Positions 5,829 to 8,469 of a stretch of DNA of 43,789 nucleotides are shown piece after piece; the stretch's first letter is position 1; the number at the start of each line of letters is the position of its first letter. The notes under the pieces were generated by a model. It was given only the letters and a program-made list of their open reading frames with translations, was not told the DNA's origin and did not search any database. The DNA is from Elusimicrobiaceae bacterium. GTDB lineage: Bacteria; Elusimicrobiota; Elusimicrobia; Elusimicrobiales; Elusimicrobiaceae. Where the stretch lies: assembly GCA_017961295.1 (NCBI GenBank), contig JAGCXL010000006.1, positions 1 through 43,789 of the forward strand, given 5' to 3'. Both the position numbers and the translations under genes were made by a program.

Positions 5829-6803
5829 ATGAAAAACATTTTAGTAATCGGCGGAGCAGGGTACATTGGCTCCCATACAGTGCGTATGCTGGCCGCAAAA
5901 GGATACAATCCCGTTGTATTTGATAATTTATCTAAAGGCCACAAAGAGGCGGTTACCGGCTACCCTTTTGAATTGGGAGATTTGGGCGACAAAAAACGCC
6001 TTACGGAAGTTTTTAAAAAATATGCTATAGACGCAGTGATGCACTTTGCGGCATTTATTGAAGTGGGCGAAAGTGTAAAAGAACCGTCTAAATACTATCA
6101 CAATAATGTAGCGCAAGTATTAAATTTGTTGGATGCTATGGTAGAAAACAATATCAAGTATTTTGTGTTTTCCTCTACAGCGGCCACCTTTGGCGAACCG
6201 GTACGCGAAAAAATTGACGAGACTCACCCGCAAAATCCCATTAACCCTTATGGGAACACAAAGTTAATGGTAGAGAAAATGCTTACAGATTTTGACACCG
6301 CTTACGGCCTTAAAGCAACCGCATTACGCTATTTTAATGCAAGCGGTGCTGACGATAGCGGGGAAATTGGCGAATCACATACCCCGGAAACACACTTAAT
6401 TCCGCTCGTCTTACAAACTGCCTCCGGCAAACGCCCATCTATCAAAGTATTCGGAACTGATTACCCCACGCCGGACGGCACCTGCGTGCGTGATTATGTA
6501 CACGTGAACGATTTAGCCCGCGCGCATATTTTAGCCCTTGAAAAAATGATGCGTGAAAATAAAAGCGAACGCTTTAACCTAGGCAGCGGCTCGGGCTTTA
6601 GTGTGGCGGAACTTATTAAGGAAGCCAAGCAGATTACCGGTATTGACTTTAAGGTAGAAACCGCACCGCGCCGCGCAGGAGACCCGGCTGTTCTAGTAGC
6701 CGATAGCACCAAAGCGCAAACGGTATTAGGTTGGAAACCTGAGTATAATTTAATCCGCATTATTCAAACTGCGTGGAACTGGGAAAAACACCGCAAGTAT
6801 TAA
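5829..6803 (+). CDS. galE: UDP-glucose 4-epimerase
   Basis: Interconverts UDP-glucose and UDP-galactose, supplying sugars for surface polysaccharides or galactose catabolism. The 324-residue protein is an extended short-chain dehydrogenase. It has the NAD-binding VIGGAGYIGSHT at the N-terminus, FDNLSKGH, the catalytic FSSTAATFG Ser/Thr region and YGNTKLMVE (YxxxK), and the family segment RYFNASGADDSGEIGE followed by LIPLVLQTASG and YVHVNDLA. AGGAG stands 9 nt before the ATG. The gene is monocistronic and is followed by a long nested hairpin with a T-run (6816-6882). Confidence 0.95.
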   Translation: MKNILVIGGAGYIGSHTVRMLAAKGYNPVVFDNLSKGHKEAVTGYPFELGDLGDKKRLTEVFKKYAIDAVMHFAAFIEVGESVKEPSKYYHNNVAQVLNLLDAMVENNIKYFVFSSTAATFGEPVREKIDETHPQNPINPYGNTKLMVEKMLTDFDTAYGLKATALRYFNASGADDSGEIGESHTPETHLIPLVLQTASGKRPSIKVFGTDYPTPDGTCVRDYVHVNDLARAHILALEKMMRENKSERFNLGSGSGFSVAELIKEAKQITGIDFKVETAPRRAGDPAVLVADSTKAQTVLGWKPEYNLIRIIQTAWNWEKHRKY

Positions 6804-6815
6804 AATATAGAACGC

Positions 6816-6882
6816 AAGCAAGCTATCCTTAAATTAAAAAATACTTATTTTTTAATTATTTTTAAAAACAGCTTGCTTTTTT
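6816..6882 (+). terminator. Nested-hairpin terminator between galE and the lexA-like gene
   Basis: The outer stem AAGCAAGCT (6816-6824) pairs with AGCTTGCTT (6870-6878), followed by Ts. Inside it AATTAAAAAATA (6832-6843) pairs perfectly with TATTTTTTAATT (6846-6857). This probably terminates galE; the unusual length is discussed in the findings. Confidence 0.65.
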
Positions 6883-6893
6883 ATTAAAAAAAT

Positions 6894-6913
6894 TATAGAA
6901 CAATATATAGAAC
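6894..6913. promoter_or_regulatory. Candidate LexA operator: direct repeat TATAGAAC
   Basis: TATAGAACAA occurs twice with a 12-bp period (copies starting at 6894 and 6906), so GAAC-N8-GAAC overlaps the expected promoter of the lexA-like gene. A third TATAGAAC is at 6806-6813, next to the galE stop. Direct GAAC repeats spaced by 7 are known LexA sites in Alphaproteobacteria (read on one strand). Autoregulation here is inferred. Confidence 0.45.
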
Positions 6914-6936
6914 AAAATAATATTGGAGAGAATAAA

Positions 6937-7545
6937 ATGAAAGCCCTTCATGCCAAACAAGTGGAACTTTTAGAAATTTTAAAGGCCAATATTTCCGACC
7001 CGCTAACCATGGAAGAGTTAGCGGAACGCTTAAATGTAAGCAGCAAAAGCGTGGTGTTTCACCATATCACACAATTGGAAAAAAAGGGGTACCTTAAACG
7101 TAATCCGGCTAACCCGCGTGATTACATTGTGCTCAAGGATCCGGAACGCAACGTGATTTACCTAAACATGTATGGCATGGCCAAGTGCGGCCCGGAGGGA
7201 ACCCTTTTGGACGGAACCCCCACCCGCGTAGTACCTGTGGACCCCAGTATGATTTATTTTCCGGCGTGTAAAGGGTTTATGGTAGAAGCAGTCGGGGATT
7301 CCATGCAAACCTTAATTGCCCCGCACGATTGGCTCATTGTAGAACAAAGTAACACCCCCCAAAATAAAGACGTTGTGGTGTGTGTCAACAACGGCGAAGT
7401 AATGGTCAAACGGTTTACTCAATACGGGGACAGCGTCATTTTGCAGAGTGAAAACCCGCGTTATACGCCCATCGTGGCAGACAAAACGGCGTTCCACGTA
7501 GAAGGCGTTGTAAGAAGTATTATTAAACGTAACGTAAGCTGCTAG
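6937..7545 (+). CDS. lexA: LexA-type repressor with S24 self-cleaving domain
   Basis: A 202-residue protein. Residues 1-65 form a winged helix (EELAERLNVSSKSVVFHHI, then GYLKR). Residues 75-202 form the S24 peptidase fold with VGDSMQ (Ser122 as nucleophile) and EVMVKRF (Lys158 as general base), close to Ser119 and Lys156 of E. coli LexA. The cleavage dipeptide is Cys84-Gly85 instead of Ala-Gly; Cys-Gly is the site used in UmuD. In this family RecA-ssDNA filaments stimulate self-cleavage and so derepress SOS genes. GGAGAG precedes the ATG. Direct repeats of TATAGAAC just upstream are probable operators. No other SOS gene is in the window, so LexA rather than another S24 regulator is likely but not proven. 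Confidence 0.85.
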   Translation: MKALHAKQVELLEILKANISDPLTMEELAERLNVSSKSVVFHHITQLEKKGYLKRNPANPRDYIVLKDPERNVIYLNMYGMAKCGPEGTLLDGTPTRVVPVDPSMIYFPACKGFMVEAVGDSMQTLIAPHDWLIVEQSNTPQNKDVVVCVNNGEVMVKRFTQYGDSVILQSENPRYTPIVADKTAFHVEGVVRSIIKRNVSC

Positions 7546-8398: not shown

Positions 8399-8469
8399 AG
8401 CGGGCGAAGGGAATCGAACCCTCGTCTAAAGCTTGGGAAGCTTCCATTCTACCATTGAACCACGCCCGC
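8399..8469 (-). tRNA. tRNA-Gly (anticodon CCC)
   Basis: Read on the minus strand, acceptor GCGGGCG (8469-8463) pairs with CGCCCGC (8406-8400). A D-arm GTTC-AATGGTA-GAAT, the anticodon arm GAAGC-TTCCCAA-GCTTT (anticodon CCC) and the T-loop GGTTCGAATCC are all intact. The discriminator is T. CCA is not encoded; a run of Ts follows immediately. TTGTAC-17-TACAAT lies upstream as promoter. Confidence 0.95.

What the first reader, a model, noticed from the sequence alone, without database searches (positions are those of the whole stretch)
6806..6913. Direct-repeat TATAGAAC candidate operator for the LexA-type repressor
TATAGAACAA is repeated with a 12-bp period in the promoter of the lexA-like gene, and a third TATAGAAC lies 88 bp upstream. 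Known LexA boxes are mostly inverted (CGAAC-N4-GTTCG, CTGT-N8-ACAG), with direct GTTC-N7-GTTC in Alphaproteobacteria. A GAAC-N8-GAAC direct repeat would be a new box for this lineage.
Basis: partly seen in the sequence, partly recalled or inferred. Interest (0 to 1): 0.55.

Follow-up and report, generated by a model that had tools for sequence, protein, structure and literature searches.

The report
Direct-repeat LexA operator of gut Elusimicrobia
The tandem TAGAAC repeat ahead of this gut bacterium's DNA-damage repressor gene is very likely the repressor's own landing site, a new layout of the SOS box, and in this genus it seems to control hardly anything except the repressor itself.

Summary
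In detail: TATAGAAC lies at 6894-6901 and 6906-6913 (period 12) and at 6806-6813. The gene is a LexA-type repressor with an S24 domain and an intact Cys-Gly cleavage motif. The tandem pair, best written TAGAAC-N6-TAGAAC (= GAAC-N8-GAAC), precedes lexA in 50 of 50 full-length loci of the genus with both half-sites letter-perfect, while the flanks have diverged. It also precedes lexA in 7 of 7 lexA-bearing genomes found in other genera of the family (one with a mismatch) and in one genome of another family. Its position relative to -35/-10 differs between lineages, so it looks like an operator, not a promoter element. In a genome the size of Elusimicrobium minutum's the only two exact copies are at lexA and recA. 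In the window's own genus recA lacks it (0 of 30). Of 67 exact copies in 61 genus genomes, 54 are at lexA and 13 elsewhere, against 12 for a backwards control. The regulon therefore seems reduced to lexA itself, although lexA is under strong purifying selection. The distal third copy is kept only in close relatives. Most likely this is a LexA box of a spacing I found nowhere in print: a new variant of a known kind. Binding is inferred, not shown.

The parts
6896..6913 (+). LexA operator (SOS box): TAGAAC-N6-TAGAAC direct repeat, period 12
   Evidence: both half-sites identical in 50 of 50 genus lexA loci; at lexA in 54 of 61 genus genomes by exact match
6894..6901 (+). first half-site TATAGAAC; its TAGAAC (6896-6901) lies 17 bp after the -35-like hexamer, at the place of the -10
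6906..6913 (+). second half-site TATAGAAC; all 8 bases invariant in 50 of 50
6873..6878 (+). -35-like hexamer TTGCTT (TTGACA or TTTACA in many relatives)
   Evidence: read by eye
6806..6813 (+). distal half-site TATAGAAC, 88 bp upstream; kept in close relatives only, possible auxiliary (looping) site
   Evidence: 9 of 50 loci
6816..6878 (+). imperfect stem-loop followed by a T-run after galE, possibly the galE terminator, with an AT-rich dyad inside
   Evidence: z -3.45 for the + strand RNA; the simple terminator scan did not list it
6925..6930 (+). ribosome-binding-site-like GGAGAG
   Evidence: by eye
6937..7545 (+). lexA-like gene, 202 aa, winged-helix DNA-binding domain plus S24 peptidase domain
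7186..7191 (+). codons of Cys84-Gly85, predicted self-cleavage bond (AKCG motif)
   Evidence: AKCG in 50 of 50; C84 and G85 invariant in A1
7300..7302 (+). codon of Ser122, predicted nucleophile
7408..7410 (+). codon of Lys158, predicted general base
5829..6803 (+). galE-like gene upstream, same strand; a neighbour, not part of the circuit

Best explanation
6896-6913 is the operator through which the LexA-type repressor encoded at 6937-7545 shuts off its own promoter. A LexA dimer sits on two TAGAAC half-sites that point the same way, 12 bp apart, and covers the -10 region, so RNA polymerase cannot start. When DNA damage makes RecA filaments, LexA is expected to cut itself between Cys84 and Gly85 (Ser122/Lys158) and release the operator. 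Shown here: the anatomy, the conservation of box and catalytic residues, the placement ahead of lexA in the family and in one genome of another family, and the placement ahead of recA in two genomes. Inferred: binding, dimer geometry, repression, RecA-triggered cleavage. In the window's genus the operator occurs, as far as tested, only at lexA.
For: Pfam LexA_DNA_bind 42.4 bits and Peptidase_S24 72.4 bits. Profile match to solved LexA repressors over nearly the whole length, best E 4.7e-22 (the best chain is E. coli's by recall). AKCG, the Ser and the Lys motifs in 50 of 50. Half-sites identical in 50 of 50, flanks 36-57% identical. 67 exact boxes in 61 genus genomes, 54 of them just ahead of lexA, 13 elsewhere against 12 for the control. 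Box ahead of lexA in 7 of 7 lexA-bearing genomes of other genera, 6 exact and 1 with one mismatch, and in G144 of another family. In G001, whose length equals that recalled for E. minutum, the only two exact copies are at lexA and recA. The second exact copy of G033 is also at recA. The box lies over the -10 in the window's genus, just upstream of -35 at lexA of G001 and recA of G033, and directly after the -10 (overlapping its last base) at recA of G001 (promoter hexamers read by eye), which fits an operator and not a core promoter element.
Against: No binding or induction data. In the window's genus recA has no box (0 of 30) and neither do the Y-family polymerase loci (0 of 18 in the family), so the classical SOS signature is missing there. 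recA has it in only 2 of 7 lexA-bearing genomes outside the genus whose recA was read, against 0 of 7 without lexA, too few to be significant alone. That genomes without lexA lack the box is nearly trivial, since the box is lexA's promoter. L088 (Chitinophagales MAG, 50% identical) and G197, whose LexAs group with G144's, show no such box at lexA. The protein falls just under NCBIfam's lexA equivalog cut-off (108 against 110.95).
Confidence: 0.88

Rival explanations
1. The repeat is a conserved promoter element (a doubled -10 or extended -10) and not an operator.
For: In the window's genus the first TAGAAC lies 17 bp after a -35-like hexamer, at the place of the -10.
Against: The second half-site is as invariant as the first. 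At lexA of G001 the whole repeat lies upstream of a good -35/-10 pair, and at recA of G001 it follows TATAAT (by eye). Exact copies elsewhere in the genus are no more than the backwards control and lie in ORFs.
Confidence: 0.05
2. The box belongs to another regulator that controls lexA.
For: No binding was shown. In the window's genus the box is at lexA only, which says little about who binds it.
Against: LexA repressors normally control their own gene (established knowledge). The same box at lexA and recA in two genomes is the LexA pattern. A separate regulator would be expected to have other targets, and none was seen.
Confidence: 0.05
3. Chance repeat in AT-rich DNA.
For: Three copies of the bare 8-mer are not rare in shuffles (8 of 100).
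Against: 50 of 50 lexA loci keep both half-sites and the exact spacing while the surrounding DNA has diverged.
Confidence: 0.01
4. A regulatory element of the lexA mRNA leader.
For: In the window's genus the second half-site may lie at or after the transcription start.
Against: In G001 the repeat lies upstream of the likely promoter and would not be transcribed from it. The two copies cannot pair with each other.
Confidence: 0.01

Closest known systems
Alphaproteobacterial LexA box GTTC-N7-GTTC (quoted in PMC8565304, passages seen)
   Same: Direct repeat of the same four-base core (GAAC read on the other strand), bound by LexA
   Different: Period 11 there; period 12 here in 50 of 50 genus loci; here the half-site is TAGAAC
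Balneolaeota LexA box TTACACATATTTTWTACATA (PMC7739468, passages seen)
   Same: Direct repeat, found by comparison of lexA promoters and confirmed there by gel shifts; regulon includes lexA and recA
   Different: Other half-site sequence; wider regulon with translesion polymerases
Gram-positive type box CGAAC-N4-GTTCG
   Same: GAAC core
   Different: Inverted, not direct; the two f7 LexAs of this kind in the tree lie in another part of it
Non-canonical LexA of Bacteroidetes (PMC8565304, abstract and passages seen)
   Same: S24-family SOS repressor with its own box; that paper associates regulon reduction with gene duplication
   Different: Those have a CI-like N-terminal domain and, in one group, a palindromic CTAA-N5-TTAG box; here the N-terminal domain is a LexA winged helix

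Membership tests
LexA repressor | LexA winged-helix DNA-binding domain | tested here: met
   PF01726 42.4 bits, cut-off 23.7
LexA repressor | S24 peptidase domain with Ser/Lys pair and cleavage bond | tested here: met
   PF00717 72.4 bits, cut-off 23.3; AKCG, Ser and Lys motifs in 50 of 50. The bond is Cys-Gly, as recalled for UmuD, not Ala-Gly as recalled for E. coli LexA
LexA repressor | NCBIfam lexA equivalog score | tested here: not met
   108 bits against 110.95, just under; hence 'LexA-type'
LexA repressor | conserved operator at its own gene | tested here: met
   50 of 50 loci; binding itself not tested
LexA repressor | same operator at recA | tested here: inconclusive
   absent in 30 of 30 genus genomes with recA, present in G001 and G033, 2 of 7 lexA-bearing genomes outside the genus
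LexA repressor | operator at error-prone polymerase genes | tested here: not met
   Y-family domain in 18 of 60 family genomes; no TAGAAC-N6-TAGAAC within 1.5 kb in any of the 18 loci
LexA repressor | RecA-dependent self-cleavage after DNA damage | not testable with these tools
   -
Alphaproteobacterial GTTC-N7-GTTC box | N7 spacing (period 11) | tested here: not met
   N8 in 50 of 50 genus loci and 7 of 7 of other genera

The most novel reading that the evidence does not exclude
In this genus (it includes Ca. Avelusimicrobium) the LexA circuit has shrunk to a single gene: LexA represses only lexA, recA and repair genes have escaped, and yet operator and protease are held under strong purifying selection. 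LexA would then serve some purpose other than the SOS response, for example as a target or guard for prophages, whose replication modules carry the same box in two related genomes.
Probability: 0.35. Interest if true: 0.65.

Novelty: new variant of a known kind. Interest (0 to 1): 0.5.

Why it matters
LexA is the textbook case of a repressor whose binding site keeps changing. This adds a box of period 12 that reuses the GAAC core of the Gram-positive and alphaproteobacterial boxes in a new spacing, so how a winged-helix dimer switches between inverted and direct sites can be tested with three close half-sites. It also gives a lineage in which the regulon may be caught shrinking: lexA plus recA in an E. 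minutum-like genome, apparently lexA alone in the gut genus, lexA not found in others.

Tried and rejected
GAAC-N8-GAAC alone as a genome-wide probe: 31 own-genome copies, below the backwards control of 78, hence useless. Near matches to the 20-base form in the own genome: 15 besides the box itself, all with 3 mismatches, below the control of 35. Of the 14 examined (the fifteenth, 6882-6901, overlaps the box), 10 lie inside ORFs of 100 aa or more and 4 do not (L093, L097, L101, L102); L097, L101 and L102 lie near ORF starts and were not excluded as weak sites. The 20-base form with up to 2 mismatches in 61 genus genomes: 98 matches against 211 for the control; the lexA boxes are 55 of them by subtraction, and of the rest only four were placed, all inside ORFs (L204, L205, L207, L208).

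A wider regulon in the genus: in five near-complete genomes, 39 sites with up to one mismatch, 5 at lexA and 34 elsewhere, against 48 for the control. By script 32 of the 34 lie in ORFs of 120 aa or more; one more reads as coding by eye; one (G054, L464) lies 41 bp ahead of a tRNA-Ser gene and is the only promoter-like candidate. In G144, 8 of 9 further sites lie in ORFs; one is 32 bp ahead of a 129-aa ORF. The ORF criterion is lenient, since an ORF on either strand counts. The one-mismatch sites of G002, G008, G011, G025 and G033 were not placed, and of G019's only the lexA site was.

lexA in an operon with a repair gene: neighbours differ between species and, by eye on the clusters of three or more, none is a repair gene (2 of 49 loci, L046 and L054, were dropped by the script). 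Viral contigs: the 20-base form gives 89 stretches, 80 listed, not followed up except L398, a longer tandem repeat; the 31-base prophage stretch gives none. L088: no exact box at its lexA; its genome has 37 sites with up to one mismatch against 94 for the control, one of them exact, read but not interpreted. L089 holds only the end of lexA and was dropped from the 51 loci. The structure predictor was not used.

Full report
What is there. The window is contig C26 of an incomplete genome (897 kb, 67% complete). Named relatives of its LexA (51 loci) are mostly titled Elusimicrobium, Elusimicrobiaceae or Elusimicrobiales MAGs, several from rumen or gut, among them Ca. Avelusimicrobium excrementipullorum; one is titled Chitinophagales. 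TATAGAAC is found at 6806-6813, 6894-6901 and 6906-6913 and nowhere else in the window. The last two form a tandem of period 12 that ends 23 bp before the ATG of a 202-aa gene. The bare count of the 8-mer is not remarkable (8 of 100 shuffles reach 3).

The gene. It has a LexA winged-helix domain and an S24 peptidase domain, matches solved LexA repressors over nearly its full length (best E 4.7e-22), and scores just under the NCBIfam lexA cut-off (108 against 110.95). The AKCG motif and the motifs of the catalytic Ser and Lys are present in 50 of 50 genus proteins. Against ten relatives dN/dS is 0.01 to 0.05, with dS over 1 (saturating) in nine of the ten, so the protein is under strong purifying selection.

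Conservation of the box. I took the upstream DNA of 49 named relatives (L039-L087; identity 76-98%) and the window. L088 (the Chitinophagales locus) and L089 (only the end of lexA) were left out. All 50 carry TAGAAC-N6-TAGAAC, starting 38 to 55 bp before the start codon. The 12 half-site bases are identical in all 50. The linker is 81% identical on average, the columns 70 to 21 bp upstream 36%, the 20 columns before the box 57% and the 18 after it 50%. The loci were anchored on a pattern that allowed C or T at one half-site base; none was lost by this. Relatedness means that the 50 are not 50 independent tests, but the flanks show that there was time to diverge.

Genome-wide in the genus. Exact TAGAAC-N6-TAGAAC occurs 67 times in 61 genus genomes. 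54 copies lie just ahead of lexA: 46 verified, and 8 by the positions. 13 lie elsewhere, against 12 for the pattern read backwards, and all 13 fall inside ORFs of 100 aa or more. G053 carries a one-mismatch version at lexA. Six genomes have no match at all: in five no lexA ortholog was found (two of them have only a distant paralog; completeness 84-98%) and in the sixth lexA is cut off by a contig end. That absence is nearly trivial, since the box is lexA's own promoter, but it does mean that no other gene keeps an exact box. Looser searches gave fewer sites than the backwards control: 98 against 211 (two mismatches in the 20-base form), and in five near-complete genomes 34 sites away from lexA against 48 (one mismatch), of which one lies ahead of a tRNA-Ser gene and the others read as coding.

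Other genera. Of the 60 family genomes, 24 belong to other genera and 7 of these have lexA. All seven have the box at lexA, six exactly and G019 with one mismatch. G144, of another family in the order, has TAGAACATAGATTAGAAC. Of the 31 upstream regions examined (three of them belong to paralogs in the window's genus), G144's is the only one with the direct repeat; five, all of family f7, have GAAC-N4-GTTC, and five others ATACA-N2-TGTAT. In a tree of 29 proteins the direct-repeat LexAs lie in a well supported part (100/98) apart from those with palindromes, together with L088, G197, two paralogs of the genus and a similar protein of G231. The direct-repeat proteins are not by themselves one side of a branch: L088 and G197 group with G144 and show no direct repeat at lexA (the upstream DNA held for G197 is 147 bases).

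recA. In G001 (1,643,562 bases in one contig, the size I recall for E. minutum Pei191) the pattern has two exact matches, lexA and recA, and four with one mismatch, all in ORFs. G033 likewise has exact matches at lexA and recA; its two one-mismatch sites were not examined. Of seven lexA-bearing genomes outside the genus whose recA was read (G144 included), two have the box at recA; of seven without lexA, none. In the window's genus recA follows the preceding gene within a few tens of bases, by eye, and has no box within 300 bp in 30 of 30 genomes; one has a single TAGAAC 218 bp upstream. Y-family polymerase domains occur in 18 of 60 family genomes, and none of the 18 loci has the box. Other repair genes (uvrA, dnaE and so on) were not looked at one by one; they were covered only by the genome-wide pattern searches.

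Operator, not promoter element. In the window's genus a -35-like hexamer (TTGACA, TTTACA or TTGCTT) precedes the first TAGAAC by 17 bp, so the box covers the -10. In G001 lexA and G033 recA the box ends one base before TTGACA or TTGCAC, followed by N17 and TATATT. In G001 recA it overlaps the last base of TATAAT and runs downstream (hexamers read by eye). One box in three promoter positions is how operators behave.

Third copy. The distal TAGAAC is kept in 9 of 50 loci: the window, 7 of its 8 relatives of 92% identity or more (L045 lacks it), and L050; none of the other 41 has it at that place. Its distance from the box is 87-88 bp in five loci and 98-99 bp in four (one of these four, L041, has a second copy at 84), which differ by about one helical turn. 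This fits looping by a second LexA dimer, but common descent and small numbers could give the same. In the window it lies 2 bp after the galE stop, at the foot of a terminator-like hairpin.

Literature. Searches for LexA with Elusimicrobia, LexA with Elusimicrobiota, and E. minutum with SOS, and for LexA direct-repeat boxes gave no paper whose listing, or passages where I looked, describe an Elusimicrobia box. In PMC7739468 I saw passages: Elusimicrobium appears only in its reference list, and it reports a direct repeat of another sequence in Balneolaeota. In PMC8565304 I saw passages: it speaks of 17 reported LexA motifs and cites GTTC-N7-GTTC. The Verrucomicrobia and Betaproteobacteria motif papers were not held, so a similar box there is not excluded. 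Papers of subscription journals are mostly outside the library.

Verdict. An ordinary circuit (LexA on its own promoter) with a box spacing that I found nowhere in print, and a regulon that in this genus seems to be one gene. What is not excluded: weaker or differently spaced sites elsewhere, and targets in the third of the window's genome that is missing.

Noticed in passing
L274, L275, L276 (paralogs in G006, G020, G043): LexA-like paralogs of about 194 aa beside RhuM-like and phage-like genes (named by eye) carry a palindrome TTTCTATT-N3-AATAGAAA or close to it in their promoter: nearly the same half-site, but inverted.
   Followed up: partly
L238 (G011) and L229 (G008), position 1501 in each: Exact boxes with a further TTAGAAC downstream, in stretches with phage-type replication genes (RusA and DNA methyltransferase in L238, DnaC-like loader in L229, by PHROGs), in genomes that have lexA: possible use of host LexA by prophages.
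   Followed up: partly
window 6840-6860 and relatives: AT-rich dyad AATACTTA-N5-TAAGTATT (or near) between the distal half-site and the box in 8 of 50 loci; function unknown.
   Followed up: partly
G013, G015, G017, G031 and other genomes of genus g3: No lexA ortholog was found in many otherwise nearly complete genomes of a sister genus.
   Followed up: no
L088: A Chitinophagales MAG contig encodes a LexA 50% identical to this one, grouping with G144 and G197: horizontal transfer or misbinned contig.
   Followed up: partly
lexA neighbourhoods, loci L042-L064 and others: Genes with a prepilin-type N-terminus (by eye) are found on either side of lexA in many species, on either strand, as if repeatedly inserted.
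   Followed up: no
window 8399-8469, - strand: tRNA gene, the only Rfam match in the window.
   Followed up: no
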